DNA from: an uncultured SAR86 cluster bacterium
GTDB taxonomy: Bacteria; Pseudomonadota; Gammaproteobacteria; Magnimaribacterales; D2472
Assembly: GCA_902586925.1 (NCBI GenBank)
Contig: CACIJE010000001.1
Coordinates: 1 to 64,000 of the forward strand
Direction of reading: 5' to 3'
Length of the DNA stretch: 64,000 nucleotides
The stretch's first letter is position 1, and each line of letters starts with the position of its first letter. The translations under genes and the position numbers were made by a program. Below, one piece after another: positions 5,554 to 27,776 of the stretch. The notes under the pieces were generated by a model. That model worked only from the letters and a program-made list of their open reading frames with translations, searched no databases and was not told the DNA's origin.

Positions 5554-5628
5554 TCCTCAGTAGCTCAGCGGTAGAGCAGTTGACTGTTAATCAATTGGTC
5601 GTTGGTTCGATCCCAACCTGAGGAGCCA
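5554..5628 (+). tRNA. tRNA-Asn (anticodon GTT), CCA encoded
   Basis: TCCTCAG...ctGTTaa...ggTTCGATcc...CTGAGGAgCCA; acceptor arms pair 7/7. Confidence 0.95.
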
Positions 5629-5658: not shown

Positions 5659-6597
5659 TCACAACCTGAGCTGCCATTTTTCATTAATACGCTCCATTGG
5701 ATTTTTTATTACTCTTCTGCTAAATATTTCTGTTTTTGGAAATTCTATATTCATTTTGTCAATAATCATCTGATTTATTTTTATCCCAAGTTCATTGATT
5801 ATTCCAAAATAATTATTTTGGGTATATTCAAGCATAGATATTTCCTCAGCCTCCACATATTCATCTAAATTACCTGAAAGAATTTCGTCATAAGAATTTT
5901 TTGTTGTTGTTATACATTCTTTCCACATATTCATGAAATCGATATGCAGATTTATATATTTATCAATATCCTTATCAGAAAATTTTTCAATACCAATGAT
6001 TGCACATTCATCCATGATAAAGTCTAGGACGTTAGGGTCTTTGATACCAGAATCTATTTTATCTATTGCAGTATTTAAATAATTTACTAGATAGTTTCTT
6101 CTATTTCTGAGGTAATGAGAGCTTCTCTTACTGTCCCAATATTGATCTTCGAGGCTCAGCATACCTTTTGAAAAATATAAATATGCAGTTTGAAGGTAAC
6201 ACTCGGGTTCTCTTTTATGTAGAAATCGCAAAAATTTATTAATAAATTTTTCTTGTTGATATGCCAAATTAATCACATCACAATCATCATTTTCATTATC
6301 ATCTTTTTTTCTAAAATCAAGCTCTTTGATTGAATAGGTGACAAAATCTCGCAGTATTTTTATTGCTTTAATGTGATCATCACTCATTTCTAAATTATTC
6401 GTATCAAATTCATTGGCTATTGAAGATGCATTATCAAATTGCTTAACTAACCTTTTATAATCATAAGTATTTATATTATCTTTGCATGTTTGATAATAGT
6501 GTTCTGCATCAGCAGCAATCCAATAAGAAAGATTCAGTTTTGTTTGTAGTTCTAGAAATAATTTATCATCAGCGTTATTTTTTTTGTAAAAGATCAT
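5659..6597 (-). CDS. Hypothetical protein, 312 aa, accessory region
   Basis: Intact ORF following the 102-aa ORF on the same strand; no family recognised. Confidence 0.6.
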   Translation of the reverse strand: MIFYKKNNADDKLFLELQTKLNLSYWIAADAEHYYQTCKDNINTYDYKRLVKQFDNASSIANEFDTNNLEMSDDHIKAIKILRDFVTYSIKELDFRKKDDNENDDCDVINLAYQQEKFINKFLRFLHKREPECYLQTAYLYFSKGMLSLEDQYWDSKRSSHYLRNRRNYLVNYLNTAIDKIDSGIKDPNVLDFIMDECAIIGIEKFSDKDIDKYINLHIDFMNMWKECITTTKNSYDEILSGNLDEYVEAEEISMLEYTQNNYFGIINELGIKINQMIIDKMNIEFPKTEIFSRRVIKNPMERINEKWQLRL

Positions 6598-6617: not shown

Positions 6618-6926
6618 TTAGTACTTTTTAATATTAATAGTTTTTTTTCTTATTGTTCTAGCTTCTTTTGCAGGTACAATCTTTTCTGGCTGTTCCTTAT
6701 AGCTTATAAATCCCCACTCAAGATTATAGTTGTTCAACCTTGCAGAAACATGATTTCCCATTGCTTCTTTAAGTTTATCCATACATAAATCTTTATGTAT
6801 TTTTGCATCCTTCATTACTCTGTCGCATTCAAGAATTTGCTCTGCGTATATTTCAAGATCCTTTGCAAGAACTTTTATATCTTCATTTGAGCTAGAAGAT
6901 AGTTTTTTTAATGAGCTCATATTCAT
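6618..6926 (-). CDS. Small protein resembling phage YqaJ-recombinase-associated proteins
   Basis: C-terminal YKEQPEKIVPAKEARTIRKKTINIKK resembles phage YqaJ-neighbour proteins; operator-like palindrome 46 nt upstream. Confidence 0.5.
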   Translation of the reverse strand: MNMSSLKKLSSSSNEDIKVLAKDLEIYAEQILECDRVMKDAKIHKDLCMDKLKEAMGNHVSARLNNYNLEWGFISYKEQPEKIVPAKEARTIRKKTINIKKY

Positions 6927-6971
6927 ATAGTTCTCCGTTTAATTATTGATTTAAAGATTATTAAATAGTTT

Positions 6972-6990
6972 TGCGACATTTTGTGTCGTA
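6972..6990. promoter_or_regulatory. Operator-like palindrome, site A
   Basis: TGCGACA-TTTTG-TGTCGTA, intergenic, upstream of ORF ending at 6926. Confidence 0.7.
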
Positions 6991-7003
6991 TAAAACTAAT
7001 TTT

Positions 7004-7822
7004 TTAAATGAGTTTATTTTCTTTCATTCCATCAAATAGCTCAGCATACTCACATTGTTTATCTCCTTTTGGACCAAAACCAGAGTCCGCATGCCTTGGA
7101 CATTCATTCATTAGAAGACAATTCTTAAGTTCCAAAATAGTATCCTCAACCCATGAATCATCTGCGTCATAAGATATCAATTGAACATCAAACCTCATGT
7201 TTGCTTTGTCAATTTCATCATTTAACATACCGTCTTCGAAATGTTGATCACCATTTACATAAACAAAATAACCAGTTTTACTTACATTGAAGCCTTCTTG
7301 TCTTAAAATCCATTGATACATATCCATTTGTTTTTTGTAAGACTCCTTATATGCACCTACTAAGGTTATTTGGTTTAATGCAGTACCTTCATCATTTTTC
7401 CTTCCAGCAGTACTTTTATAATCAACAACAAAAATTTCATCAGTTTTAAGATCATGCCAAACATCATCCAAGCCACCCCCAATGATCAAATTGGATGGCT
7501 CATGGAAAGTTCTCAATCCAAGTTGAAGTGACTTTGTCCAAAGTTCAAAATTTTCATGTTTAAATGGTACTAGATGACCTAAACCATTTCTTTCCATAAA
7601 TGGATGTGGCTTTTGCATTTCTCGATATCTATCAAAATCTTTTTTTAACAATGTATCAGTTGCAGAATTAAGCAAAAAGCCAGGCATTCCTGGAAATTTA
7701 ATTCCCTTTACCCTATTCATCCAAAAGCAAGCAGGGCAATTCATAAATGATTGAATTTGAGATCTGCTTACCTCATAGGGTTCTGGATGTTCTGGTTTAT
7801 ATGTTCCTCTGTGTCTTGCCAT
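7004..7822 (-). CDS. PD-(D/E)XK nuclease superfamily (RecB/Cas4-like)
   Basis: GGGLDDVW...EIFVVDYKST...YKKQMDMYQWIL; Cys residues in NCPAC and near the C terminus (ECPRH...QCEY). Confidence 0.75.
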   Translation of the reverse strand: MARHRGTYKPEHPEPYEVSRSQIQSFMNCPACFWMNRVKGIKFPGMPGFLLNSATDTLLKKDFDRYREMQKPHPFMERNGLGHLVPFKHENFELWTKSLQLGLRTFHEPSNLIIGGGLDDVWHDLKTDEIFVVDYKSTAGRKNDEGTALNQITLVGAYKESYKKQMDMYQWILRQEGFNVSKTGYFVYVNGDQHFEDGMLNDEIDKANMRFDVQLISYDADDSWVEDTILELKNCLLMNECPRHADSGFGPKGDKQCEYAELFDGMKENKLI

Positions 7823-7841
7823 AACTAATTATAACCACAAA

Positions 7842-8618
7842 TCAAAGCAAGGGTTTTTTTATAGCTTTTGCATCTTTTACGCCAAGGATATCTTTAATAA
7901 ATCGGTATCCCTCTTGCCCCCTCTTCTTGATAAGCGCCTTTTTAAAAATATCTTTTTCCTCACCAGATAGACCATAAATAAAATCAAGCATATGTTTGTT
8001 GGTGCCACCAAAAATAGGCATAGTTATGTAAAAAGCGTTTTTGGTGCAGGCTACAGTTTGTCCCTCTTCATTTTGATTAATGGCGATTTGTTGCCCTCTA
8101 ATATTACTTTTATCAACAATAAGGTGCTTAAAGTCTAGGATATATTTAGCGTTATATAGGATTGAATTATTTTTTTTATTATCGACTTTTTGATTTTTAA
8201 TTATTTTTTTTAATTCAGGAAACTTACCATCTATCGGATTAAAAAAAAATGTATTAATAGCAGCGTTATCAAGACTAATAAAATATTTTCTATACATATT
8301 TTTTGATATGTTTGAACGATATTTAACAATAATTTTTTTCTTTCTATTTGCTGATTTTCTTGAGAGAGTAATTAATTTCTCCAGGCCCTTTTTAGGAATA
8401 ATGATTCCTTTTTTATGAGAACATGAGCCTAACTCGTCATAGAAACATATTATTCTGTGGCCATCTGTGGCAACTATATTTACACCGCCATGTACAGAAG
8501 GATTTATAAAAACACCTTGTAAATTCTGCCTCCAATCAACATTTGGCACAATAAACATTGCATTGCCAAACATTCCAGCATTGAATTCTAATAAAGTATT
8601 CTTATGCATAAGCGTCAC
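7842..8618 (-). CDS. Divergent short DNA polymerase III beta-clamp-like (DnaN-like) protein
   Basis: NIVATDGHRI...GIIIPKKGLEKL...FFNPIDGKFPELKKII match DnaN signatures VATDGHRL / IIPRKG / LIDGEFPDY. Confidence 0.75.
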   Translation of the reverse strand: MTLMHKNTLLEFNAGMFGNAMFIVPNVDWRQNLQGVFINPSVHGGVNIVATDGHRIICFYDELGSCSHKKGIIIPKKGLEKLITLSRKSANRKKKIIVKYRSNISKNMYRKYFISLDNAAINTFFFNPIDGKFPELKKIIKNQKVDNKKNNSILYNAKYILDFKHLIVDKSNIRGQQIAINQNEEGQTVACTKNAFYITMPIFGGTNKHMLDFIYGLSGEEKDIFKKALIKKRGQEGYRFIKDILGVKDAKAIKKPLL

Positions 8619-10776
8619 TTGTTTCTTGTTTGTTAAAACCGAAGTCTCTCTTGTATTTAGCTATTAAAAGAAGATCATCTTCTCCTAGCTTATTGCAGAA
8701 TATTTCAAATAATTTTTTTCTGTCTAATTCAGATTTAAACCATTTTGGCTTAATTTTTTGTAATCTCTTTAATGAAAGCTTTTTGGCTAATGACATATTC
8801 GATTTAAAAGCTGGGACACATATATCTTTATCGGTTTTGATTGTTATGTGTGCTCTTAAAAATTTTTCTTCAGGCTTGTCGTGAAAAATGTTATCAAGTA
8901 ATCTTTTATTTTTTTTAGAAGAAATTGATGCATATTTAAACGATTGTGTATTTTTCATACAAGCAAATTTTAAAACATCAGGGTCTGACTTTATTCTTTC
9001 TGAAGCGTATTTTAAGCTTTGATATGATTTTATAACCGCTTGAATCATAAATTTTTTATTATCAAGTAGATTTGGTGGTATATGATTTTTTTCAAAGCAA
9101 GTAAGTCCTTGTTCTGCAAATAATTTGAAATAAAATTTGCTATTAACAATTTTATTAAATTGCTCGGGTTTGCAAAAAGGTGCATTCCTAGGATCTTTTT
9201 TTTGACCAAATTTAATTTCAGGATCGTATATTAGAAAATTTGGATTTTTTAATAAAAAATATTCCATAATTTCACGAGTTTTGAGTTTATCTGAAATTTT
9301 AAAATAAAATAATTTGCTATAGGATTCATTGTCTGCATGATGACGGTAATCAAAAGTTGATTGATAACTTATGATTTTTTTTAAGAACTCAAAGTCTTTA
9401 TTTGATTCTATATGCTCGATAGTTCTTTTAGTGATATCGTCAAGGAACGTCCTGACAAAACCATCTTCATAATAATTCGATATGTGAAGCATTTTTCTAA
9501 ATTGTATTAAAAAAAGTTTAGAAGATTTAACCCTTTCATCTAAATTGTCGTAAAATTTTTTGATCTCATAAGAATATATAAACTCATCCCCACGATCTCC
9601 ACTTACATGCGGGTGAATATTTAATTTACATGCAATATGATGAATATATTCTGCTGCTTTTTTAGGACTAGCCTCAATATATTTTAAAAATGTGCACTTT
9701 TTTGATTCTATTTTTTTATGCATAAAAAAAAGAGGGTGAGATGGATTATGAAGGCTGATATTTACATGACTATAAATACTATAATCTTGATCTAAAAATC
9801 TACATTCGTAGAGAAATTTGCTTATCTTTGAATCTGTAATTTTATTTATATCAATATTTTCTGAGATTTGTTTGGAGGCGTTAATCGTATTAAAAATTGG
9901 CCAGTTAAAACGAAAATTAACAAGCTTATCTATACTTTTAGTCTTTTTAAAAAAAGCATCTAAAATAGCATTTCGTAACAAAGAAAAATCTATACCAGAA
10001 ATCCTTAATTTTCTCATCATTATTTTTGTCGATTCGTGATATCCATAATAACCTTTACCTTCAAAAGGGAATGGTAAAACATGAGGAGTTGGGGTGCTAA
10101 GTGCATAATCTATGACGATATCCGCGTACTCCTCTAGTGTAATTTCATTATTAAGCATGAATAAATAAGCTGCGCTTGGTGAAAGCTTAAGTGCTTGTTT
10201 TTTAATCTCAAGGTCATCATATGTTTTAGATTTTTTTATTACTTTCCAAGGTGGGCTAAAATATTCCCATGAAGCAACGTGAAATTTGTCAAAAAGTGAA
10301 AGATTTTTAGGGTGACTAGAAGGTATTTTTAGACAATTATCATATTGTTTAGATTTTGGCACTAGTAAATTTTTTGAGTGACCAAAAGATCTTAGAATAT
10401 TTTTTTTTGTTTGAAATGAGTGATCTAGAGACTCTACAAAATTAAATGAGTCATCTTTTTTATTTTCAATAATAAAATTAATTATGAACGGGTCATTAAA
10501 ACATATTTCAGGCAAGTGTCTTGGCATTTTCTTTTGCCTTGTTAACCATTTTAAAACTATTTCTCTATCACTTCTTAACCTCTCAGAAATATGAGCAATA
10601 TTAAAATACTTCTCATGTATATACTCAAGTACGAAGTCTTTATCATCAAAATATTTTGATGAAATAATTTCATCTGGCTTAGTATGCCAGCGATTAGCAA
10701 GTGATTTATAGGCTTCAATAACTGAAGATTTGTTGTTTATCAATGGTTTGTTGAATAAATTTTGACTATTTTTCAT
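8602..10776 (-). CDS. Large DUF4116-like helical-repeat protein (724 aa)
   Basis: Repeats such as DFVLEYIHEKYFNIAHISERLRSDREIVLKWL and KFMIQAVIKSYQSLKYASERIKSDPDVLKFA. Confidence 0.55.
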   Translation of the reverse strand: MKNSQNLFNKPLINNKSSVIEAYKSLANRWHTKPDEIISSKYFDDKDFVLEYIHEKYFNIAHISERLRSDREIVLKWLTRQKKMPRHLPEICFNDPFIINFIIENKKDDSFNFVESLDHSFQTKKNILRSFGHSKNLLVPKSKQYDNCLKIPSSHPKNLSLFDKFHVASWEYFSPPWKVIKKSKTYDDLEIKKQALKLSPSAAYLFMLNNEITLEEYADIVIDYALSTPTPHVLPFPFEGKGYYGYHESTKIMMRKLRISGIDFSLLRNAILDAFFKKTKSIDKLVNFRFNWPIFNTINASKQISENIDINKITDSKISKFLYECRFLDQDYSIYSHVNISLHNPSHPLFFMHKKIESKKCTFLKYIEASPKKAAEYIHHIACKLNIHPHVSGDRGDEFIYSYEIKKFYDNLDERVKSSKLFLIQFRKMLHISNYYEDGFVRTFLDDITKRTIEHIESNKDFEFLKKIISYQSTFDYRHHADNESYSKLFYFKISDKLKTREIMEYFLLKNPNFLIYDPEIKFGQKKDPRNAPFCKPEQFNKIVNSKFYFKLFAEQGLTCFEKNHIPPNLLDNKKFMIQAVIKSYQSLKYASERIKSDPDVLKFACMKNTQSFKYASISSKKNKRLLDNIFHDKPEEKFLRAHITIKTDKDICVPAFKSNMSLAKKLSLKRLQKIKPKWFKSELDRKKLFEIFCNKLGEDDLLLIAKYKRDFGFNKQETSDAYA

Positions 10777-10777
10777 T

Positions 10778-11932
10778 TTAGTGCCAACTTTCAGTAGAAA
10801 TTCTTATTACTTCGCCAAAAGGAAATTCTGAAGTTTCTTCACCATCAGCTGAAACTAACCACATGACAGGATCCTTTGGAACAAATTTTGGAAATTCTTC
10901 GTATCCATCTGTGAGGTAAATAGAAACTTTATGGGAACCCATATGATTTTCGTTGTTTTTTTCAAGGTATTTAAAGAAGGGTACAAAGCTTGTTCCTCCC
11001 CCTCCCTTTAAAACTGGGATTTCTTCAGGAGAGCTTATTTTAAATGGGCCAGACAATTCACAATCACAAAAGAAAAAGTCACATTTCACATGTGGATATG
11101 ATTTTAATATTCCATTTATCTCTGCTACAAATTGATCTATTAGATCTCTTGAGACTGAACCACTTGTATCAACACAAACTGATACTTCCAAAGCCTCGGT
11201 CATAAGACCCTCAAGATAAAGCCCTCTGTACAAGAATCTTCTGTCTAAGTCATCAAAATCTGCTGGTGTTCTTCCTACATATTTCCAAAGTGCATGTCTC
11301 CAATTCACCTCAGGTTCTAAAATATTTTCTACTTCTCTTTCCATTCCATCTGGCAAACCTCCTGTGGTATTACTGCCAAATTTGTCAGAATTATTTACCA
11401 TATCGGAGTTTTTTAAAACTTGTATTTTATCTTTCCAGTAACTTTCTATCTCCAGACCATCTGCTTGACTAGAATTATCATTAGTTCCGCCGTCTTTAAG
11501 ATCCTGAATATATGATTTATGCTTTTTGTATTTATTGTTTTTCAGTAAAGATTCGTAAATAAATTCAACTGACTTATCCCTGTATGTTTTATCAGTAATT
11601 GCTCCTTTTGGCAGTATAAAAGTAGTATTTCTTAAAATTAAATCATTTACGACTATGTCAGCAGCAATATTCCATATTTTTGGATCTCTATTTTGTCGTC
11701 TTGTAACATGCAGCAGTGCCATATGAAGAACTTCGTGCAACATTAAGGCATTTTGCTCTGAAGAATTAAGGCTTTTGAGAAAATTCATGTTGAAATAAAT
11801 ATCTTTTCCATCTGTACAAGCTGTATCATATTTTTTTGTTTCTTTAATCGAGGCAAATAACATCAAGGCTCCAAAGAATTGACATTCTTTTCGGACTTGA
11901 AGCTTGCATTTGCTGATAATTTCTTCAAACAT
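10778..11932 (-). CDS. VWA-like protein with N-terminal putative metallopeptidase domain (DUF2201 type)
   Basis: LMLHEVLHMALLH (HExxH) plus CVDTSGSVS MIDAS motif. Confidence 0.85.
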   Translation of the reverse strand: MFEEIISKCKLQVRKECQFFGALMLFASIKETKKYDTACTDGKDIYFNMNFLKSLNSSEQNALMLHEVLHMALLHVTRRQNRDPKIWNIAADIVVNDLILRNTTFILPKGAITDKTYRDKSVEFIYESLLKNNKYKKHKSYIQDLKDGGTNDNSSQADGLEIESYWKDKIQVLKNSDMVNNSDKFGSNTTGGLPDGMEREVENILEPEVNWRHALWKYVGRTPADFDDLDRRFLYRGLYLEGLMTEALEVSVCVDTSGSVSRDLIDQFVAEINGILKSYPHVKCDFFFCDCELSGPFKISSPEEIPVLKGGGGTSFVPFFKYLEKNNENHMGSHKVSIYLTDGYEEFPKFVPKDPVMWLVSADGEETSEFPFGEVIRISTESWH

Positions 11933-11933
11933 T

Positions 11934-12971
11934 TTATGCTGCTAATAATTTTTGAAGTCTTTCTGCAACCTTCATAAGCTTGTTATTATTTGCAATCATA
12001 TCTACTAACTGGTCCATTTGTTTAGAAGTTTTCCATTTTGCACAGACATCATAAGTACACTGACTAAGCCACTCCATTCCACCTTTATCATCAATATATA
12101 AGAAGGTGTTTTCTACTTCTTTTATGGTCTTAGCTCTTGTTGCAAGAGCGCATGTTAGTGCATACCTAGCAGATAAATCCTTAGGGAAGCTTGGTTTTGC
12201 CTTACCTTTTAATATTGGTTCAATATCTGGTAATGTTTTATAAACTTTGCAAAAACTTCTAAATTCAGCTGCACAACCCTCGCCTATTGCAGGATCTATG
12301 TCTAAATTAGCTTTCAACAAAGAATTGCTAATATCCCAACTTCTTGGTGAAGGCCATGAGGGAGAGTTTTTGTCAATTTTATGGAGATATTTTGGTCTAA
12401 AATTAAGAAATGAAATAATTCTGTCGTCAACATCATTTGTTAAGGCATAGTCCTTAAACTCATCAAGACCTGTTGTAACCTCCAGATGAATAAATCTATT
12501 AGCCAAAGGTGCTGGCATATCAAAAACTGCTGCAAAATCCTCTTTTCTATTTCCAGCTGACCAAATAAACCATCCGTCAGGGACTTTATAGCTACCAACT
12601 TTTCTGTCTAAAATTAATTGTTGAGCAATACCTTGAACAGCAGGTGGTGCCATATTTATTTCGTCTAAGAATAGAATGCCTTTTCCATCTTTTGGTAAAA
12701 ATTCTGGGGGATACCAACAAGCAACATTATCGTTTGGAACAGGGATACCTCGTAAATCTGTTGGAGCTAATTGACTAATCCTTAGATCTATAAGCTCAAG
12801 ATTATTTCTTTTTGCAACCGAACTTACTACAGATGATTTTCCAATACCTGGTGCACCCCAAATCATCAACGAAGATTGGATATTATGTTCAACTATGCTG
12901 CTAAGATAGGATGAAAGTTTTTTTATTGAAAGTTTTTTCATTTTTTTTCCTCTTTGAAATTTAATTATCAT
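11934..12971 (-). CDS. MoxR-type AAA+ ATPase
   Basis: Walker A GAPGIGKSS, Walker B GILFLDEINMAPPAVQ; directly upstream of VWA gene; probable start at an internal ATG giving MKKLSIKKL. Confidence 0.85.
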   Translation of the reverse strand: MIIKFQRGKKMKKLSIKKLSSYLSSIVEHNIQSSLMIWGAPGIGKSSVVSSVAKRNNLELIDLRISQLAPTDLRGIPVPNDNVACWYPPEFLPKDGKGILFLDEINMAPPAVQGIAQQLILDRKVGSYKVPDGWFIWSAGNRKEDFAAVFDMPAPLANRFIHLEVTTGLDEFKDYALTNDVDDRIISFLNFRPKYLHKIDKNSPSWPSPRSWDISNSLLKANLDIDPAIGEGCAAEFRSFCKVYKTLPDIEPILKGKAKPSFPKDLSARYALTCALATRAKTIKEVENTFLYIDDKGGMEWLSQCTYDVCAKWKTSKQMDQLVDMIANNNKLMKVAERLQKLLAA

Positions 12972-12986
12972 AAGATATTATTAAGT

Positions 12987-13005
12987 AACGACATTTTGTG
13001 TCGCA
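12987..13005. promoter_or_regulatory. Operator-like palindrome, site B, in divergent promoter region
   Basis: AACGACA-TTTTG-TGTCGCA between moxR-like and WYL genes. Confidence 0.75.
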
Positions 13006-13023
13006 TTTAAAGATTAAAGTTTG

Positions 13024-14034
13024 ATGAAAAAACCAACTCGTTATGAGGCTATAAGAAGAGGATTTAATATCCTCTCTATGGTCAGTCGAGCTCCATTAGG
13101 ATCTAAAGATGTCCATGATCGAATAAATCGAATTGGTACTGAAGTAAGTAGAAAAACTATTGAAAGAGATTTAAAAGAACTAACTGATCGATTCCCTGAG
13201 ATGATTGAAGTTGATGATTCATCTAAACCATATACCTATAGACAGCCAAAACATGCTAGAAAATATTCTGCAATGAGTGCAGAGGAAGCTATATGTCTTC
13301 AACTTGCGTTCACTTATTTAAATCCTTTGTTGCCGAATAGATCACTCGATGATATCAGGCCTTATTTAAAAGAGGCGGAAGCTGTCCTAGGTGAGCAGTC
13401 TTCTGTAAAAATGAAAAATTGGAAACATAAAGTTTTAACTGTTAATGAGGGTTTACAGCTTGCACAAGCAAAAATTAGAGACAATATTTTAACAAATATA
13501 CACAAAGCTCTCTGGGATGGTAAAGCAATTATTGCAAGCTATCAGTCAAAAAGTAAAGCTTTTCCCTCTGAGTACAAGCTTCACCCTGCTGGGCTTGTTT
13601 ACAGAGGAAGAATTTGTTACTTAGTTTGTTCTTTTGATGATTCACCAGATAACATTATTTATTTAGCAGCACATAGGTTTCACAAAATTAAAATTTCTCT
13701 TGATACCTATAGCAGACATAAAAATCAAAAAGTTAAAGATCTAGCTAAAGACTTATTTGGGTTTAAGCTGAATGACAAAAAAATAAATATTAAACTAAAG
13801 TTTTCTGTTCAAGCAGGATCTCATCTGTATGAAACGCCAATTTCGAGTTCTCAAAAAATAAAGATGTCTAGAGATGGCTATATATTAGTTGAGGATAAAG
13901 TTACTGATAATATGGAACTTAGATTTTGGATAAGAGCTTTTGGAGATTCTGTAGAAGTAATTAAACCAGTCAAACTTCGAGATGAGTTTAAGAAAATATC
14001 AAAAAGAATGGTAAATTTATATAATGAAAATTAA
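13024..14034 (+). CDS. WYL-domain transcriptional regulator with N-terminal HTH
   Basis: HTH-like KDVHDRINRIGTEVSRKTIERDLKELTDRFP; WYL-type HPAGLVYRGRICYLVCSFDDSPDNIIYLAAHRF; ATG at 13024 (ORF track starts TTG 13021). Confidence 0.85.
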   Translation: MKKPTRYEAIRRGFNILSMVSRAPLGSKDVHDRINRIGTEVSRKTIERDLKELTDRFPEMIEVDDSSKPYTYRQPKHARKYSAMSAEEAICLQLAFTYLNPLLPNRSLDDIRPYLKEAEAVLGEQSSVKMKNWKHKVLTVNEGLQLAQAKIRDNILTNIHKALWDGKAIIASYQSKSKAFPSEYKLHPAGLVYRGRICYLVCSFDDSPDNIIYLAAHRFHKIKISLDTYSRHKNQKVKDLAKDLFGFKLNDKKINIKLKFSVQAGSHLYETPISSSQKIKMSRDGYILVEDKVTDNMELRFWIRAFGDSVEVIKPVKLRDEFKKISKRMVNLYNEN

Positions 14035-14422
14035 GCCAAATTCTATTGATGCTGTTATTTTTTTTACATTGTATATTTGCGCTCAAGACGATTTAATTGC
14101 TAAGGAAGAAATTGAACAAATTGATATTGAATTTCCAATGATTCAAAAATTATATTTTGATATATATGGGGAATTCATTAAAGAGGACCTTAAAGAGCTT
14201 ATGAGAAGTGTTTCAAACAAATTATTATCAAGTAACAAATTTATCAAAAAAAGTGTATCAAAACTAGAAAATACTACTTTTTCAACATTAATTACAGATC
14301 CGAAGCTTCAAGACATTTCATTATTATTCGCTAGGCATGCTGCAAGTGCAGACGGTTTACATGCTCTAGAAGAAAACAAGTTTAATTATTGGGCAAAAAA
14401 ATGGGGTCTTTCGAAAGTTTAA
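14024..14422 (+). CDS. TerB-like small protein
   Basis: Acidic helical pattern AQDDLIAKEEIEQID...LLFARHAASADGLHALEENKFNYWAKKWGL; overlaps the WYL gene end. Confidence 0.45.
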   Translation: MKIKPNSIDAVIFFTLYICAQDDLIAKEEIEQIDIEFPMIQKLYFDIYGEFIKEDLKELMRSVSNKLLSSNKFIKKSVSKLENTTFSTLITDPKLQDISLLFARHAASADGLHALEENKFNYWAKKWGLSKV

Positions 14423-15315
14423 TGTTTTGTTATTGATGAAGTGACTACACCTATAATTTGAAAATCACAAGTCTCAAAATCTTTATAAACTTTATCTTTT
14501 TTATCAATTACAAATCCATTTTTTCTATATTCAAGACATCCACATATAAATTCGCCGTCTATCATAGCAACAACAATATCATTAATTTCTGGTTTTTGAG
14601 ATTGATCAACAATCATAATATCTCCGTCGTTAATACCGTGCTCTCGATTAGATTGGCCTTGAGCTCTATATAGGATAGTTGCAGATCTATTTCGAATAAG
14701 ATATTTGTTTAAATCTATAGGACCTTCGATATAATCTGATTCATCACTTGGAAAACTTGGTTTATTTTTCTTATTTAAACATGGGTATATAATTTTTCTC
14801 AAAAATTTGGTATCAATAACCTTTCCACTATATACAGCATCACAAAGTTCTTCTGATTCAAAAAATCTTTTTTCATGGGAACCAAATTTATTAGTTTTAA
14901 TGTTTAAGCTTATCGGGAAGAAAATTGTTCCTGGCTTTGAACGATCTTCTGTTAATAAAGCTCTTAATGGAGACGGTATGGAATATCCATCAAAAATGTA
15001 ATCTGCAAATCGTAATAAATTAAAGAAGATTTTCCAAGCAATGCTTTTTTTTAAATTAGCTTCTTTTTGTAAACACTTTTCTCTTAGATTTTTATATTTT
15101 TGTTCAAGATATTCTTTTTTATTACGTAAATCTGAAATTTCTTTTGCTTTGACAAAAATTTCGTCTCCCTCAGCAGGCAAGCTTTCTCTTATTCTTATGT
15201 CTTTGGAAACTTTTATTATCTCATCAGGCATATACGTTTGATCTATTAATATAGACAAAACATATATTTGATTTATTTTAGTGTTTCCTAATAAACCTTT
15301 AGTAGTGAAAATCAT
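14419..15315 (-). CDS. UmuD/S24-like C-terminal domain fused to ~165 aa N-terminal region; likely inactive protease
   Basis: SDYIEGPIDLNKYLIRNRSATILYRAQGQS aligns with UmuD at 34108; Lys of the Ser-Lys dyad replaced (EFICGCL vs EFVCKRL). Confidence 0.8.
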   Translation of the reverse strand: MIFTTKGLLGNTKINQIYVLSILIDQTYMPDEIIKVSKDIRIRESLPAEGDEIFVKAKEISDLRNKKEYLEQKYKNLREKCLQKEANLKKSIAWKIFFNLLRFADYIFDGYSIPSPLRALLTEDRSKPGTIFFPISLNIKTNKFGSHEKRFFESEELCDAVYSGKVIDTKFLRKIIYPCLNKKNKPSFPSDESDYIEGPIDLNKYLIRNRSATILYRAQGQSNREHGINDGDIMIVDQSQKPEINDIVVAMIDGEFICGCLEYRKNGFVIDKKDKVYKDFETCDFQIIGVVTSSITKH

Positions 15316-15319
15316 TACT

Positions 15320-15508
15320 TTAAAAAATGATTTTTAAACTAAATGAAATTTGACTTGGTTCTTCCTCAACACAGGATTTCGAGGAGAAAATGTGTTTAAT
15401 ATTACTATTTTTTTTATAAACATAGTTTTTTGATAATTCATTGTAAAAATCTGATGACATATTTGGAAGTTCTAGTTGCAATTCTTTTGATTCTGATTCT
15501 GTAGTCAT
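15320..15508 (-). CDS. Hypothetical small protein, 62 aa
   Basis: Intact ORF immediately upstream of the UmuD-like gene, 47 nt after site C. Confidence 0.5.
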   Translation of the reverse strand: MTTESESKELQLELPNMSSDFYNELSKNYVYKKNSNIKHIFSSKSCVEEEPSQISFSLKIIF

Positions 15509-15554
15509 TTTTATTCTCCTATTAATTTTTAATAATAAAATTATTTATCAATCA

Positions 15555-15573
15555 TGCGACAGAATAGGTCGGA
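15555..15573. promoter_or_regulatory. Operator-like palindrome, site C (diverged right arm)
   Basis: TGCGACA-GAATA-GGTCGGA. Confidence 0.6.
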
Positions 15574-15589
15574 AAAAAATATTAGAGTG

Positions 15590-15623
15590 GCGCCCTTGCA
15601 TAATTTTACTCATACCAGGGCGC
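15590..15623 (+). other. Hairpin 1 of the duplicated element
   Basis: GCGCCCT...AGGGCGC, loop contains GCATAATTTTACTCATA. Confidence 0.7.
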
Positions 15624-15638
15624 ATCTATAGTGATCCG

Positions 15639-15734
15639 TTGCATATAGATGCTTTAACAAGCTCACCTAACAAGGCGTCTTTCACTTTGCATATAGATGC
15701 TTTAACAAGCTTAGCTAACAAACGTCCTTGTTCT
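15639..15734. repeat. Imperfect tandem repeat, two units of about 48 bp
   Basis: ttGCATATAGATGCTTTAACAAGCTcAcCTAACAa at 15639 and 15687. Confidence 0.8.
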
Positions 15735-15858
15735 TGATTTTCCGCAAAGCTAATGTGCTTTTGTACTAATAACATAAAATATCGATAAATATTACGGTAA
15801 TAATCAATGTTTAATAAAATATGCCACTCAATCAACTATGAAAATTATTTATCAATCA

Positions 15859-15877
15859 TGCGACATAATAGGTCGGA
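15859..15877. promoter_or_regulatory. Operator-like palindrome, site D
   Basis: TGCGACA-TAATA-GGTCGGA. Confidence 0.6.
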
Positions 15878-15902
15878 CAAAAAGATATACTAGAATTGAA
15901 AT

Positions 15903-15934
15903 CGCCCTCGCATAATTTTACTCATACGAGGGTG
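15903..15934 (+). other. Hairpin 2 of the duplicated element
   Basis: CGCCCTCG...CGAGGGTG with same loop GCATAATTTTACTCATA. Confidence 0.7.
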
Positions 15935-16098
15935 CTTCAATGTAGATCCGTAGCATAAGAAGATTTAACAAGCTCAGCTAAAAAAGCATCCTTGTATTGT
16001 TTTTTCCGCAAAGCTAATGTGCTTTTGTACTAATAACGTAAAATATCGATAAACATTACGGTTAAAAACAAGGTTTAATTAAATATGCCACCAAACCA

Positions 16099-18252
16099 CT
16101 ATGCCACTTCTGCAAGTAGTTGTTTTTTAAATTTCGAATGCTTCAGCATCGACTTATGAACAACTGATCTATAAGCATTATAGACATAGATTTTTTCTTT
16201 TTTATCTAATTCTGAGGTATCTAATTTATAGAAATCATTTTTGTTTAGTAAAAATTTTGCGTATTCTGGATTAATTTTAAAAACACAATTTGAAATTGTT
16301 TTATGAAAACAATGTGTTCTAAGAATTAATTGTAAGATTGATAAATCCTGGTCACGACCTCCAGTCAACATTGGATTATGTAATAAATATTGTGCAATAA
16401 ATAACCTATTTTTAAGCAATTTAGATCCTCGAAGATCATCAGTTGATTCAATGTGTGGTGGAGGCACACTTATGATAAATTTAGAAAATTTATCTCCAGA
16501 AATAATAACTTTATTGAAACAGTTTAAACATTTAAAATTTTTTCTATATACCTGCTTGATTAAACAGTGATTTTTTTTCCATTGAGGATAAATCTTAAGA
16601 ACAGTTTGCATCTGTTTTACTGAATAACTTTCTAAAGTTTCAAGAAAAAGATTTTTTGATTCTTCTGAAGAGTAGTGTTTAGATGCAAAATTCCAAAACT
16701 GAATTAATATATCAAGACTGTGTTTCTGTGAAACATAATATTTATATATTTTTTTTATCAAATCTTTATCTTTGTATGGATCTAAATTTAACTTTGAAAA
16801 TCTATTTCCTCTTGAGGATATGAGATTTTGTGGCATCTTTCTCATGAAATATTTCTTAATATTGTATTGATCATCTCGTAGCATGTGAAAAGTATTTTGT
16901 ATATGGTCATAATCTGCATATATCGATTGCGTTATAAGATACTTTCGTATTTTTGGACAATTTTTAATCATCAGCTTGACTAGGTTGTAATCAAAATCTA
17001 AAAGCTCATGGGATGAAATATTAAATGTAGAGCCATAGAATTTAAATACCCTGATTAGTTCTCTACATATTTTAAAATCGCTTTGCAAAATTGTTGGAAG
17101 CGCTAAATATGACTTTCCAATTTTTCCTGATACATGAGATGCTTTTTCTGTAGAGCCTTGAAATAGATTTACCTGGCTAAATTTTTCATTTGGATTTAAT
17201 TTTAGTTGTTCAAGCTCTTTTTTAATGTTTTGTAATTCCCTATAAAAGTTATCTTTATGTATTTTATAATCTGATAACTTAGCTGTTTCCATTTTATTTA
17301 AATTATTCTTTATCAAACTCAATTCAAAAATATCTATATTTCCATTATTTTTTTTACGGTGATGTGTTTTAGCAGCAAGTAATAAAAAGGCTTTTTTAGC
17401 TTTAGAAAGCTTTATATTTTTTTTAGACAAATCTAGAATTTCTTGATATTTAATTTTAGTTACTTTGCTTTCAGGACAATAATCAAAGTAATACTGAAGA
17501 TCATTATCTGTTAAGTTTTTTAGATTGATATCAATATGTTGAAAACATTTATTTTTTACAATTTTTGTTGTTATTGTATCTATGTTCCTAATTTTTGAAG
17601 GGATGCAGTCGATTTGATTGGGATAGTTATCTATCATGCAAGATGCAATATCTAAATCGTATTGCATATCAGAGGTTAAATCACCATACGTAAAAATAAC
17701 ATCATTAGTATTTCTATTATTTTTTGAAAAGCAGCCGTTATTTAGGGCTTTTAGAAGTTGATTTTTTTTGAGTTTTCTTCCTATTCCTTTATGCAGTGGT
17801 AATCCAAACTCAACCAGCTTTTGAGTTATTTCAGGATCATTTAAGACTTTAAATGATATGACTCTTACAAAAGATGTCGTATTAAAGCTTTTAGAATTTT
17901 TACTTAATAATTTTAATAACAGTCCTTTATCTTCTCTGATGTATGAAGGCATAATCCCCCAGTCAAGCGGATGTTTTGAGTTTGTGATTACTTTTATATA
18001 TAGATTTTTATGAGATATATCTTTTGAAATTTTATATCTATGCAGCCTGCCAAGCCATCCTTGTAAAGACCAGTTATCATATCTTATTATAAAATTTAAT
18101 AGGTCTACATCAGTAAGATATTTAAAAGGAATGGAATTAATATCCATTTTTTTACTTTTAATTTTTCTTAAAACACCTGCTTTGTTAAGCAAATGTTTTG
18201 TCTTAAAATCAAGGTAAACAAACCCTGCAGATGATTTTGTTAAATAGTTCAT
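16099..18252 (-). CDS. Large hypothetical protein, 717 aa, helical-repeat, possibly related to the 724-aa DUF4116-like protein
   Basis: Lys/Ile-rich helical repeat pattern and size resemble 8602-10776. Confidence 0.5.
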   Translation of the reverse strand: MNYLTKSSAGFVYLDFKTKHLLNKAGVLRKIKSKKMDINSIPFKYLTDVDLLNFIIRYDNWSLQGWLGRLHRYKISKDISHKNLYIKVITNSKHPLDWGIMPSYIREDKGLLLKLLSKNSKSFNTTSFVRVISFKVLNDPEITQKLVEFGLPLHKGIGRKLKKNQLLKALNNGCFSKNNRNTNDVIFTYGDLTSDMQYDLDIASCMIDNYPNQIDCIPSKIRNIDTITTKIVKNKCFQHIDINLKNLTDNDLQYYFDYCPESKVTKIKYQEILDLSKKNIKLSKAKKAFLLLAAKTHHRKKNNGNIDIFELSLIKNNLNKMETAKLSDYKIHKDNFYRELQNIKKELEQLKLNPNEKFSQVNLFQGSTEKASHVSGKIGKSYLALPTILQSDFKICRELIRVFKFYGSTFNISSHELLDFDYNLVKLMIKNCPKIRKYLITQSIYADYDHIQNTFHMLRDDQYNIKKYFMRKMPQNLISSRGNRFSKLNLDPYKDKDLIKKIYKYYVSQKHSLDILIQFWNFASKHYSSEESKNLFLETLESYSVKQMQTVLKIYPQWKKNHCLIKQVYRKNFKCLNCFNKVIISGDKFSKFIISVPPPHIESTDDLRGSKLLKNRLFIAQYLLHNPMLTGGRDQDLSILQLILRTHCFHKTISNCVFKINPEYAKFLLNKNDFYKLDTSELDKKEKIYVYNAYRSVVHKSMLKHSKFKKQLLAEVA

Positions 18253-19055
18253 ATGCTTAAAGAGGGTAAAGAGTTTTTGCTGTTTGCTAAATCTAATAAC
18301 CTTTTTTTATGAGTTGCAATAATAAAGGGGTCTGTATCAAACCTTTGACATCTTTTCTTATATTGCTGCCATATTAACTTAAAAATTTTTGGATCTTGCA
18401 TCAAAGAATAGTCGAGCACATCGATTTGAATATTTTTAAGTTTTTTTATAAATTGTAGTCTATTATTTTTCTTTGAAAAAATCGCAGCTTCTATAAAGCA
18501 TAAATATTTTTTTTCAGACTTTTCAAGACAATCAAAATACTTACCATTTTCAATAATTATTTGTCTTTTTATATCTAAATTTGGATGAACATTAGTTAAA
18601 AATTTTATTAGCTCTGGATTAGAGTTGCAACTGTATTCCTTTATATTCTGTGGCATATGATTAACTAAAAATGGAAAGGAGTCAGAAATCTTTTTTCCAA
18701 TCTTATTGTTAAGCTTAGATTTGTAAACTTTATAAAAAATATCTCGAACATCTTTTTTTATCTTATCAATTTTATTTTCGAATATATTTTGAGACATATG
18801 CTCATGGGCATATTTAAAAACATTCCCTCTTTTATCTTTTCCTTGATCAATGATCAATCTTGTTTGCGAAAATTGTGGCCAAATATGATATTTGACCTTC
18901 TTGTTAGATGATTTTCTGTAAAATCCTCCATTGCCGCCAACAGAATCTATAAGCATTTGCATTTTCTCAATGTCATTTTTTAGTCCCATCCAATAGAAGT
19001 TTTCGTTTGCTATATGAGACTCTCCTCTTGCCTCTTCTAATAATTTTATATTCAT
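18249..19055 (-). CDS. Hypothetical protein, 268 aa
   Basis: Stop/start overlap with the 717-aa gene; operator E 66 nt upstream. Confidence 0.55.
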   Translation of the reverse strand: MNIKLLEEARGESHIANENFYWMGLKNDIEKMQMLIDSVGGNGGFYRKSSNKKVKYHIWPQFSQTRLIIDQGKDKRGNVFKYAHEHMSQNIFENKIDKIKKDVRDIFYKVYKSKLNNKIGKKISDSFPFLVNHMPQNIKEYSCNSNPELIKFLTNVHPNLDIKRQIIIENGKYFDCLEKSEKKYLCFIEAAIFSKKNNRLQFIKKLKNIQIDVLDYSLMQDPKIFKLIWQQYKKRCQRFDTDPFIIATHKKRLLDLANSKNSLPSLSI

Positions 19056-19120
19056 TAACAGTATTTCTTATGTTTTGCCATTTACCTTATTGGTAATAGG
19101 AATAAATTTTTACTAAGAGT

Positions 19121-19139
19121 TGCGACATTTAGTGTCGCA
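19121..19139. promoter_or_regulatory. Operator-like palindrome, site E (perfect arms)
   Basis: TGCGACA-TTTAG-TGTCGCA. Confidence 0.75.
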
Positions 19140-19154
19140 TAGAAGAATAAAACT

Positions 19155-19481
19155 TTAGTGATGATTTTCTATATCTGGAGGATCGCTTTTTATTAAATAT
19201 TCAATATCTTCTGATTGTTCTTGTTTATGCCCAACGAGAATTATTATTTTATTGTTGCTTAGGACGCAAGTATAAATTCTTCCCTGATTATCATTTCCAT
19301 TTGATATCTTATGAGTAACTTCTTTCCAGTGCTTAGTTTTTTGTACATTTTTATAAGAGATATAGCTGTCTTTACTATGAATTTTATATATTACATCCTC
19401 CAGCTTCTGAGTATCTTTGAAATGCCTATAAACAGCTTTAAGACCCCTTGGTAATAAATTAATATTCGAGTATCTATCCAT
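19155..19481 (-). CDS. Hypothetical protein, 108 aa
   Basis: Intact ORF with operator F 27 nt upstream. Confidence 0.5.
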   Translation of the reverse strand: MDRYSNINLLPRGLKAVYRHFKDTQKLEDVIYKIHSKDSYISYKNVQKTKHWKEVTHKISNGNDNQGRIYTCVLSNNKIIILVGHKQEQSEDIEYLIKSDPPDIENHH

Positions 19482-19507
19482 GCTTCTCTCAAATTGCGAT
19501 ACTAATA

Positions 19508-19526
19508 TGCGACATTTTAGGTCGCA
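19508..19526. promoter_or_regulatory. Operator-like palindrome, site F
   Basis: TGCGACA-TTTTA-GGTCGCA. Confidence 0.7.
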
Positions 19527-20148: not shown

Positions 20149-20493
20149 ATGAAAGAAGTAATTGATGTAATAAAGCTTTCTGCTTGCATTTCTGCACAAG
20201 ATGGTGTGATTTCAAATAGAGAATTAGATACATGTCGTGAGCTTATAAGAGATGAGTACGGAGATCTTAGTGACGATTCATTTGATCAGGCAATTGATGA
20301 TTTTTTTGATGAGAACCTTGATTTAGAGGATTATTTAGAGAAGGTTAAATCACATAAAATGGATAATCATTGCGTTTTAAAGATTAGCTATGAGTCAGCT
20401 ATTAGTGATGGTTTTGATATAAGAGAAAATTTAGCTTTCACAAAAGCATGTAAATTTTTTGACATACCAGAAGAGGAATTTATTGATGCCTGA
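20149..20493 (+). CDS. TerB-like small acidic protein
   Basis: ISAQDGVISNRELDTCRELI...ISYESAISDGFDIRENLAFTKACKFFDI. Confidence 0.45.
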   Translation: MKEVIDVIKLSACISAQDGVISNRELDTCRELIRDEYGDLSDDSFDQAIDDFFDENLDLEDYLEKVKSHKMDNHCVLKISYESAISDGFDIRENLAFTKACKFFDIPEEEFIDA

Positions 20494-21850
20494 GCTTGTT
20501 AACGGAAATCCATCTCCAAAATCTCATATCAAAACGTTAATGAGAATTGGCTACGATTTAAATTCTGCAGTTGCTGATATTATTGACAACTCAATATCTG
20601 CTGAAGCATCTGAAATTGCAGTAGCCTGTCCTCCTGATTCAAGTGAGCCTTATATCTTAATCTCTGATAATGGTATTGGAATGAACGAGGGTGAGCTTAT
20701 TGAAAATATGCGAATCGGATGCAAGGATCCAAGCTTGGAAAGAGATTTAAAAGATTTAGGAAGGTTTGGATCCGGGATGAAGACTGCAAGTTTTTCTCAA
20801 GCTAGAAAGCTAACTGTTATTTCTAAAAAGAAAGGCTCCAATATTTGTGCGGCTTATTGGGATATAGATGAAATAGAGGAAACTGATACGTGGTGTCTAA
20901 AAAAATTAAATACCAATGAAATTAAAGATATACCTCAACTTAGCAATAATCCTATAAGTAAAAATGGAACATTATTAATATGGGAAAAGATTCCAAAATT
21001 TTTTATTAAAGATCATGTTAGCTTAGAAAAAGAGATTGCTTCTAACATGGTAGATTTAGCCAAATACATATCCTTACATTTTCATAAGTTTATGCAAGGT
21101 CCTAATAAAGTATCAATTTCTGTTCAGAATAGAGAATTAAAGCCATTAGATCCATTTCTAAAAGGACAGCCTGGATCGCAGGATGGGCCATCTGAGCCAA
21201 TAAGAACAAAAAAAGGTAAAGTAACTGTAAATACTCATATTCTCCCCCATCCAAAAAGAATTTCAAAAAGTTTGATTGATGAGCATGGTGGAATTGATGA
21301 AATATATAAAAATCAAGGCCTATATATCTATAGAGCTAATAGATTAATTATTGCTGGGGGATGGATGGGGATATCTAATACTAACATCTTGGGCAATCTT
21401 GCTAGAGTTGAAATAAATATTCCTGCCAGTTTAGATGATGAGTGGTCAACGGATGTAAAAAAGTCATCAATGCAGCTACCACCAAAAGTTAAAACTGTTT
21501 TAAAAAGACTTGGTAAAGTTCCTGTTGAAGGCTCTAAAAAAGAACATAATTATAGTGGCAATAAACAAATAGCTAATCAATATTGGGACATAATTGAAGA
21601 TGAAGTTAAAAAAACAGTTAAATACCATATCTATCTTGATAATAATGAATTAAAGAGTTTTACCGAAGAACTTACAAAAGATAAAAAGATCGCTTTAAAA
21701 AAATACTTACAAAATCTTTGTATTAATCTTCCCTATTATCATATTTTTCAAAAACATGCTGCAGACCCTAAAGCAATTGAACAAAATGAAATTGATTTAG
21801 ATACATTTATTAAGGCTCGTAAAGAACTAGACAAAATATGGAACACTTAA
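20486..21850 (+). CDS. GHKL (MutL/MORC/Hsp90-like) ATPase of modification-linked defence systems
   Basis: DIIDNSISAEASEI, DNGIGMNEGEL, GRFGSGMKTASFS; ATG 20486 overlaps preceding stop. Confidence 0.85.
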   Translation: MPELVNGNPSPKSHIKTLMRIGYDLNSAVADIIDNSISAEASEIAVACPPDSSEPYILISDNGIGMNEGELIENMRIGCKDPSLERDLKDLGRFGSGMKTASFSQARKLTVISKKKGSNICAAYWDIDEIEETDTWCLKKLNTNEIKDIPQLSNNPISKNGTLLIWEKIPKFFIKDHVSLEKEIASNMVDLAKYISLHFHKFMQGPNKVSISVQNRELKPLDPFLKGQPGSQDGPSEPIRTKKGKVTVNTHILPHPKRISKSLIDEHGGIDEIYKNQGLYIYRANRLIIAGGWMGISNTNILGNLARVEINIPASLDDEWSTDVKKSSMQLPPKVKTVLKRLGKVPVEGSKKEHNYSGNKQIANQYWDIIEDEVKKTVKYHIYLDNNELKSFTEELTKDKKIALKKYLQNLCINLPYYHIFQKHAADPKAIEQNEIDLDTFIKARKELDKIWNT

Positions 21851-24636: not shown

Positions 24637-24638
24637 TA

Positions 24639-25610
24639 ATGAGCGATATGGAAAATGTTTTTCGAGATGATCCTTGGGAGGGAATTGATAATCCAAATGC
24701 CTCAAGAAGGCTTTATGAAAAAGATAAGCGGTTTTGGGTCAGTATTGACGGCGATGGAAGGCTTGAATTTATTATTATAGAAAATGGTAAATATGAAGTT
24801 AGAAACCTGCCAAGTCTGAGCAGTTTAGAAATATCTGTTGATCTTAATCATGATAATGAAACAAGATTAATTTGCACATTAACAGATGAGGATCTTAAAG
24901 ATAAGTTTGCTATTATTGCAAAGGCTATTGCATATAAAAACACTAATCTAGCTGGGAATATTTTTTTAGATGCATGTAAAAATCAAATTATTTCTTGGGG
25001 TGAATTCTTAAAACCATCTCGAAAAGGTCTTACTCATGCTGAATGGATTGGCTATTGGGGTGAGCTCTACGTACTTCTATTCATGGTGCACCCAACTTAT
25101 AGCTTTCATGATGCTGTAAAGTTTTGGATTGGCCCTTTAGACAAGAAACAGGATTTTGCTATGCATAATATTGCGCTTGAAATAAAGACATCTATGACAG
25201 GAGACTCTTCTCATATAAAAATTAGCTCACTTGATCAGCTACATAAAGTTTCTGACAAATTGTATTTGTTGCACTTGCATATAAGCAAAACTAATGATGA
25301 ATCTGGATATTCTCTTCAAGATTTATATGATTTAGCCATAAGTAAATTTGATGATAATACAGAAACTCAACTTGGTTTTACTGATAAAACTAAAAAACTT
25401 CAAAGTAAGGCAAGCAAAGATCAGTTAGAACAAAAATTTAATTTCGTTACTAATGAAATCTACAGCGTCCCTGATAATGCTCAAGATTTTCCTGCACTCA
25501 CATCTATGAATGTTAATCAAGGTATTAGCTCAGTTAAATATTCGATAAATCCAGCCAGATTAACAAATTTTAACGTAAATGATTCCATTGAAGAAATAAT
25601 AAAACAATAA
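24639..25610 (+). CDS. PD-(D/E)XK motif protein (DUF4420 type)
   Basis: GYWGELYVLL...KKQDFAMHNIALEIKTS; follows Z1 gene. Confidence 0.8.
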   Translation: MSDMENVFRDDPWEGIDNPNASRRLYEKDKRFWVSIDGDGRLEFIIIENGKYEVRNLPSLSSLEISVDLNHDNETRLICTLTDEDLKDKFAIIAKAIAYKNTNLAGNIFLDACKNQIISWGEFLKPSRKGLTHAEWIGYWGELYVLLFMVHPTYSFHDAVKFWIGPLDKKQDFAMHNIALEIKTSMTGDSSHIKISSLDQLHKVSDKLYLLHLHISKTNDESGYSLQDLYDLAISKFDDNTETQLGFTDKTKKLQSKASKDQLEQKFNFVTNEIYSVPDNAQDFPALTSMNVNQGISSVKYSINPARLTNFNVNDSIEEIIKQ

Positions 25611-25625
25611 ACTTTAACTAATTCT

Positions 25626-27764: not shown

Positions 27765-27776
27765 GAGATAAAAAAC

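What the first reader, a model, noticed from the sequence alone, without database searches (positions are those of the whole stretch)
6972..19526. Six-site palindromic operator defines a dedicated regulon across the island
The motif TGCGACA-N5-TGTCGCA (variants) occurs at 6972, 12987, 15555, 15859, 19121 and 19508. All six copies are intergenic, have 5-nt spacers, and lie 16-66 nt upstream of an ORF start. Together they precede essentially every transcript of Part A, including the divergent moxR-like/WYL promoter (site B lies 16 nt from the moxR-side ORF start and about 18 nt from the WYL ATG). I saw no copy in the core genes or in front of the GHKL/Z1/AIPR cassette. Inference: the WYL-domain regulator at 13024 autoregulates and co-represses the whole module. 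WYL regulators such as BrxR and CapW are established palindrome-binding controllers of defence loci.
Basis: partly seen in the sequence, partly recalled or inferred. Interest (0 to 1): 0.87.

Follow-up and report, generated by a model that had tools for sequence, protein, structure and literature searches.

The report
DriD-type switch of a defence island
Six near-identical DNA switches in an ocean bacterium (SAR86) sit in front of the genes of one inserted, defence-like island and nowhere else in its genome; they match the switch of DriD, a DNA-damage sensor that turns genes on, so the island is probably turned on by a stress or phage signal rather than simply held off.

Summary
All six sites are real (0.63 expected), and the exact core CGAC-N7-GTCG occurs six times in the 1.18-Mb genome, only here. 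The WYL protein as reader is strongly supported: 23 of 29 other SAR86 WYL loci carry the same core (or its CGTC variant) at the WYL gene (0.019 expected per locus), even at 28-33% protein identity.

The interpretation needs correcting. Protein, fold and operator match Caulobacter DriD, a WYL activator switched on by single-stranded DNA, not BrxR or CapW: published DriD consensus ATACGAC-N7-GTCGTAT, full-length profile match E=2e-24, top seven fold matches. In the window and in 47 other SAR86 promoters the -10 box stands 9 nt after the operator, with no -35 box. DriD promoters have this geometry; a repressor does not need it.

Best reading: a DriD-type activator switches on the module from five or six operator-promoters and probably dampens its own gene. 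The ligand is unproven: one of two arginines needed for ssDNA binding in PafB is replaced. New: DriD-box control of defence islands, recurring in SAR86 beside Hma, Ssp and Hhe-like genes. Binding, sign and ligand are untested.

The parts
6972..6990 (.). Operator A, in front of hyp102-hyp312; -10 AATAAT at 6957-6962 (minus strand)
   Evidence: same position kept in L066 at 11215
12987..13005 (.). Operator B, shared by the MoxR operon (minus) and WYL (plus); -10 TATCTT at 12972-12977 on minus, TAAAGT at 13015-13020 on plus
   Evidence: left half and spacer invariant in L066 and L067
15555..15573 (.). Operator C, in front of hyp62-S24; -10 AATAAT at 15540-15545 (minus)
15859..15877 (.). Operator D, in a duplicated non-coding unit; -10 AATAAT at 15844-15849 (minus); no credible ORF
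19121..19139 (.). Operator E (perfect match), in front of hyp268-rep717; weak -10 AAAAAT at 19106-19111 (minus)
19508..19526 (.). Operator F, in front of hyp108; poor -10 CGCAAT at 19493-19498 (minus), the weakest promoter of the set
12954..12981 (+). sigma-70-like promoter TTGAAA-N16-TATTAT of the WYL gene; expected start falls in operator B (likely self-repression)
   Evidence: 10 of 12 matches; consensus match only
13021..14034 (+). WYL regulator of DriD type (ATG probably 13024): wHTH, three-helix bundle, WYL, WCX
14024..14422 (+). TerB-like 132-aa protein co-transcribed with WYL; a WYL-TerB pair recurs in SAR86 and on a Vibrio plasmid
   Evidence: no Pfam hit above cut-off
11934..12971 (-). 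MoxR-like AAA ATPase (start probably ATG 12941), first gene of the operon behind operator B
10778..11932 (-). DUF2201 metallopeptidase-like + VWA protein
8602..10776 (-). DUF4116 repeat protein, fast-evolving (31% identity to L066)
7842..8618 (-). DnaN (sliding clamp)-like protein, fast-evolving (27% to L066)
7004..7822 (-). PD-(D/E)XK nuclease, recurrent neighbour of this WYL family
6618..6926 (-). hyp102, first gene behind operator A
5659..6597 (-). hyp312, second gene behind operator A
15320..15508 (-). hyp62, first gene behind operator C
14419..15315 (-). UmuD-like S24 peptidase-domain protein with a long N-terminal extension
18249..19055 (-). hyp268, first gene behind operator E
16099..18252 (-). 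717-aa protein of unknown function, second gene behind operator E
19155..19481 (-). hyp108, gene behind operator F

Best explanation
The WYL protein at 13021-14034 is a DriD-type homodimeric transcription activator, and the six palindromes are DriD-type boxes. Each box replaces the -35 region of a weak promoter whose -10 lies 9 nt downstream. When the WYL domain is loaded with its effector (by analogy single-stranded DNA from phage replication or DNA damage), the protein binds the boxes, recruits RNA polymerase and switches on the MoxR/VWA/DUF4116/DnaN-like/nuclease operon and the other units together. At its own gene the same box covers the expected start site, so it probably limits its own expression. 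Shown here: the boxes, their restriction to the island, their phylogenetic link to WYL, the DriD relationship, the fixed promoter phasing. Inferred: binding, sign of regulation, ssDNA as signal, anti-phage role of the module.
For: Six of six genome-wide core sites are in the island. 23 of 29 SAR86 WYL loci have the core or its CGTC variant at the WYL gene against 0.019 expected per locus. Full-length profile match to DriD orthologues (E=2e-24, 310 columns); the SAR86 WYL profile finds DriD first in PDB (E about 1e-12; BrxR 7qfz 0.2); DriD complexes are the top seven fold matches (E 3e-15 to 3e-13; CapW/BrxR 2e-9 to 1e-6); same domain order (PMC12340889). Published DriD consensus ATACGAC-N7-GTCGTAT, and a DriD orthologue 90% identical over the WYL-WCX region carries TGCGACA-GAAAC-GGTCGTA at its own gene. 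The -10 peaks at a gap of 9 nt in 7 window promoters and in 47 others from SAR86 (score +1.3 against a mean of -2.6 at other gaps; 0 of 2000 rotations); 9 nt is also what I deduce from the DriD promoter sequences and text. -35 matches are at most 3 of 6, fewer than in shuffles. Where a gene separates MoxR from WYL (L067), each keeps a box.
Against: No experiment. Of the two arginines needed for ssDNA binding in PafB (R211/R214), I align only the second (R219) in the SAR86 proteins; the first is P or A, so the effector may differ. Operator F has a poor -10 at the predicted place and E a weak one. The operator-to--10 distance in DriD promoters was read from sequences and text; the figure was not available. 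L068-L070 have WYL relatives at similar modules without this box. The predicted structure has modest confidence (pLDDT 79, pTM 0.52). The cassette most clearly tied to defence (Mza) has no box.
Confidence: 0.72

Rival explanations
1. The WYL protein is a BrxR/CapW-like repressor: it sits on all six boxes in uninfected cells and lets go when an effector binds.
For: WYL repressors of defence islands exist and BrxR uses inverted repeats with 5-nt spacers; CapW sites overlap -10 and the Acinetobacter BrxR site overlaps -35. Operator B covers the expected start of the WYL gene.
Against: BrxR and CapW are more distant by profile and fold; the E. fergusonii BrxR operator has another sequence (aaacctactg-N5-cagtaggttg); promoters without a -35 would be nearly silent when derepressed; the constant 9-nt phasing over some 54 promoters is not needed for repression.
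Confidence: 0.15
2. Dual regulator: activator of the module with effector, repressor without it (MerR-like).
For: The operator lies between -10 boxes on both sides in many divergent promoters; the PafBC paper notes that DriD can bind its promoter without ligand, KD 25 nM.
Against: DriD itself activates and is autoinhibited without ssDNA; nothing here tests basal repression.
Confidence: 0.1
3. The boxes are read by another protein, e.g. the UmuD-like S24 protein or a core regulator such as LexA.
For: The S24 gene lies behind operator C; S24 domains occur in LexA-like repressors (general knowledge).
Against: The S24 protein has no recognised DNA-binding domain; boxes follow WYL genes in loci without S24; no core sites occur elsewhere in the genome; box variants follow the WYL recognition helix.
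Confidence: 0.03

Closest known systems
[quoted passage not shown]
   Same: Full-length homology, domain order, recognition-helix pattern (R/K)-T-x-(E/Q)-R, operator CGAC-N7-GTCG, operator over the -35 with fixed -10, operator shared by regulator gene and divergent operon
   Different: About 18% aligned identity; one arginine position known from PafB for ssDNA binding is not kept; here the targets are clustered in one inserted island instead of dispersed repair genes (didA, bapE, recJ, dnaG)
BrxR (BREX repressor, E. fergusonii and Acinetobacter)
   Same: wHTH-WYL-WCX dimer regulator beside defence genes; inverted repeat with 5-nt spacer upstream of its own gene
   Different: Different half-site sequence, much weaker profile and fold match, repressor
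CapW (CBASS repressor)
   Same: WYL dimer binding one palindrome in a defence promoter; a CapW-ssDNA structure exists (9c5g)
   Different: Repressor with site over the -10; more distant fold match; single operon, not a multi-box island
PafBC and SiwR (mycobacterial WYL activators)
   Same: DNA-damage responsive WYL activators; the SiwR palindrome of 19 bp spans the -35 to -10 region
   Different: PafBC is a heterodimer working by sigma adaptation; both actinobacterial; other targets

Membership tests
DriD-type WYL activators | wHTH - three-helix bundle - WYL - WCX in one protein of about 330 aa | tested here: met
   337 aa; helices 87-103, 106-125, 128-137 between wHTH and WYL in the model; Pfam WYL and WCX
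DriD-type WYL activators | Full-length sequence relationship to DriD closer than to other solved WYL regulators | tested here: met
   (BrxR was compared as a single sequence, which weakens that one contrast)
DriD-type WYL activators | Operator ATACGAC-N7-GTCGTAT | tested here: met
   Core CGAC-N7-GTCG in all six sites; published consensus; DriD orthologues
DriD-type WYL activators | Operator over the -35, at fixed distance from -10, poor -35 | tested here: met
   sites E and F are individually weak
DriD-type WYL activators | Residues that bind ssDNA in the WYL domain | tested here: inconclusive
   Of the PafB pair R211/R214 the second is kept (R219), the first is P/A216; DriD's own contact residues could not be read because the structure papers are not held
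DriD-type WYL activators | Activates transcription with ssDNA | not testable with these tools
   needs in vitro transcription
BrxR/CapW defence repressors | Close sequence/fold relationship | tested here: not met
   Fold E 2e-9 to 1e-6 against 3e-15 for DriD; PDB profile search E=0.2 for BrxR; hhalign to E. fergusonii BrxR 3% probability
BrxR/CapW defence repressors | Palindromic operator at its own promoter, beside defence genes | tested here: met
   Operator B; defence-related neighbours
BrxR/CapW defence repressors | Represses its target promoters | not testable with these tools
   promoter anatomy argues against it

The most novel reading that the evidence does not exclude
DriD-box regulators form a second, LexA-independent damage-response network that evolution has attached to mobile defence islands: a single WYL activator per island senses nucleic acid released by phage attack and switches on every unit through a box that stands in for the -35, and changes in its recognition helix (T46 to M) give islands separate boxes (CGACA or CGTCA) so that islands do not cross-talk.
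Probability: 0.45. Interest if true: 0.75.

Novelty: new variant of a known kind. Interest (0 to 1): 0.62.

Why it matters
WYL regulators of defence islands characterised in the papers read here (BrxR, CapW) are repressors, and how such islands are switched on is an open question. A DriD-type activator with a readable box and a strict promoter grammar (box, 9 nt, -10, no -35) predicts which genes are induced and by what kind of signal, and can be searched for in any genome. It would tie phage defence to the SOS-independent DNA damage response. Cultured relatives with a box exist, for example on plasmids of Vibrio echinoideorum, Marinobacter shengliensis and Sphaerotilus sulfidivorans, so the model can be tested outside uncultured SAR86.

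Tried and rejected
BrxR operator as the source of the motif: the E. fergusonii BrxR site has another sequence. LexA or S24 as reader: see rivals. WYL relatives on viral contigs: none found. Single-sequence phmmer against PDB found nothing; the profile did. Rfam on the duplicated C/D unit: no match; it folds somewhat better than shuffles (z -2.7), unexplained. Left half-site as a -35 (GCGACA-16-AATAAT at operator B): not general, because the -10 score at that gap (4 nt) is low over all sites. A box for the WYL relatives in L068-L070: none convincing. The DriD structure papers (PMC10853764, PMC9186387) are not held.
Full report
What was checked. The window lies in a SAR86-group gammaproteobacterium; a close relative of the locus is titled SAR86, and the genome held has 1,182,387 bases in 9 contigs, 94.6% complete. 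At up to three mismatches there are 19 other places, none with the core on both sides.

Who reads the boxes. WYL relatives were found in 29 of 203 genomes searched in the order, including the window's own. Of 29 WYL loci other than the window's, 23 carry CG[AT]C-N7-G[AT]CG between -260 and +110 of the WYL gene, where 0.019 per locus would be expected from the rest of the same loci. This holds at 28-33% protein identity. In the loci whose recognition helix reads RMIQRDL instead of RTIQRDL (L082-L084, L087, L090) the palindrome is CGTCA-N5-TGACG or close to it, usually twice per island. In L067 a gene has come between MoxR and WYL and each side has its own box. In L066 the boxes equivalent to A and B are at the same places. 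Some WYL relatives elsewhere in the class also have the box, several of them perfect (L098, L102, L114). The simplest reading is that the WYL protein reads this box; binding itself is not shown.

What kind of WYL protein. The SAR86 profile finds DriD first among solved structures (E about 1e-12) and E. fergusonii BrxR only at E=0.2. A full-length profile comparison with DriD orthologues (fetched) gives E=2e-24 over 310 columns. A predicted model (pLDDT 79) has the DriD domain order, and the best seven fold matches in the PDB are DriD complexes. The published DriD consensus is ATACGAC-N7-GTCGTAT (PMC12340889), which is the window's motif with A or G at one position. An orthologue 90% identical to DriD over the WYL-WCX region has TGCGACA-GAAAC-GGTCGTA at its own gene (L125), against TGCGACA-GAATA-GGTCGGA at window site C.

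Promoter anatomy. In DriD promoters the operator overlaps the -35 and stands at a constant distance from a weak -10 (PMC12340889). From the three promoter sequences printed there and the statement that G-14 is conserved, I deduced a gap of 9 nt between the 19-mer and the -10 (the figure itself was not available; 7 nt was the alternative). In the window the -10 score averaged over the promoters peaks at exactly 9 nt. In 47 further operator-to-gene orientations from other SAR86 loci it peaks at 9 nt again, +1.3 against a mean of -2.6 at all other gaps, and none of 2000 rotations reached it. The best -35 at spacers of 16-18 matches TTGACA in at most 3 of 6 positions, less than in shuffled sequence. 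This is the anatomy of activator-dependent promoters. Sites E and F are individually weak.

The WYL gene itself. A sigma-70-like promoter TTGAAA-16-TATTAT (12954-12981) points at WYL, and operator B (12987-13005) covers the expected start. The WYL ATG (13024) is too close to operator B for a normal leader behind the -10 at 9 nt. In Caulobacter DriD activates the operon divergent from driD but not driD itself. I infer self-repression at WYL and activation of the MoxR side. The MoxR start is probably ATG 12941, not the longest-ORF start 12971.

What is controlled. Operator B: MoxR, VWA/DUF2201, DUF4116, DnaN-like, PD-(D/E)XK nuclease. Operator A: hyp102, hyp312. Operator C: hyp62 and a UmuD-like S24 protein. 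Operator E: hyp268 and a 717-aa protein. Operator F: hyp108. Operator D: no credible gene. Several products resemble DNA-repair or phage replication proteins. The neighbouring GHKL/Z1/DUF4420/AIPR cassette matches MzaB-E and has no box, but in L069/L070 the Mza genes, a Dcm, WYL-TerB and MoxR-VWA stand in one block, so the link between the two halves recurs. In other SAR86 loci WYL neighbours include HmaA, SspC, Hhe/PDC-S37-like and RmuC proteins. That the MoxR module is anti-phage is an inference from context.

The signal. DriD and PafBC are activated by single-stranded DNA, and a CapW-ssDNA structure exists. Of the arginine pair required in PafB (R211/R214) only the second aligns with an arginine here; the first is P or A. 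So ssDNA is the best guess, not a result.

Setting. The island is inserted at tRNA-Asn (5554-5628) beside uvrB. In two genomes of the same genus (G094, G109) the same tRNA region is followed directly by the gene at 31085-31513 of the window, i.e. the site is empty. G134, G042 and G143 carry other versions of the island at the same place.

Verdict. Observation confirmed. Interpretation half right: one regulon, one reader, one island, but of DriD type and most likely switched on, not held off. New variant of a known kind.

Noticed in passing
window 5554-31085: The island sits between tRNA-Asn/uvrB and the gene at 31085; two genomes of the same genus have an empty site, others carry different islands there: an integration hotspot.
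   Followed up: partly
window 20149-28706: TerB, GHKL, Z1, DUF4420, AIPR and Dcm genes: four of them match MzaB-E of PADLOC; in L069/L070 the same set adjoins WYL-TerB and MoxR-VWA.
   Followed up: partly
window 7842-10776: DnaN-like and DUF4116 proteins are only 27-31% identical to their L066 counterparts while MoxR, VWA and nuclease beside them are 71-84% identical: possible fast-evolving recognition parts.
   Followed up: no
window 15537-16098: Two copies of a non-coding unit, each with an operator and a strong hairpin (GCGCCCTGGTATGAGTAAAATTATGCAAGGGCGC in one copy); no Rfam match, folds better than shuffles (z -2.7).
   Followed up: partly
L085:3678-5503, L089:5705-7531, L072:12341-13150, L167:4007-6224: A PD-(D/E)XK nuclease is a recurrent neighbour of this WYL family, in L085 and L089 divergent with a shared box, and also near WYL on a Methylomonas plasmid without a box.
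   Followed up: partly
L168:3816-5312, L169:5475-5493, L172:5088-5106: Plasmid WYL loci of Vibrio echinoideorum (WYL-TerB, box with TATAGT at 9 nt), Marinobacter shengliensis and Sphaerotilus sulfidivorans (perfect boxes, the latter before an ATPase-Sir2 pair): cultured test cases.
   Followed up: partly
window 15320-15508, L067:11963-12088, L071:16132-16272: Small ORFs beside boxes share a motif like (Q/N)(L/V)ELP followed at some distance by FYN; possibly a family of small box-controlled proteins.
   Followed up: no
L068:18457-19485: WYL relative (48%) with recognition helix SEKTVTRDL and another palindrome (TTATACA-N6-TGTATAA) upstream, beside a reverse transcriptase gene; it lacks the DriD box.
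   Followed up: no
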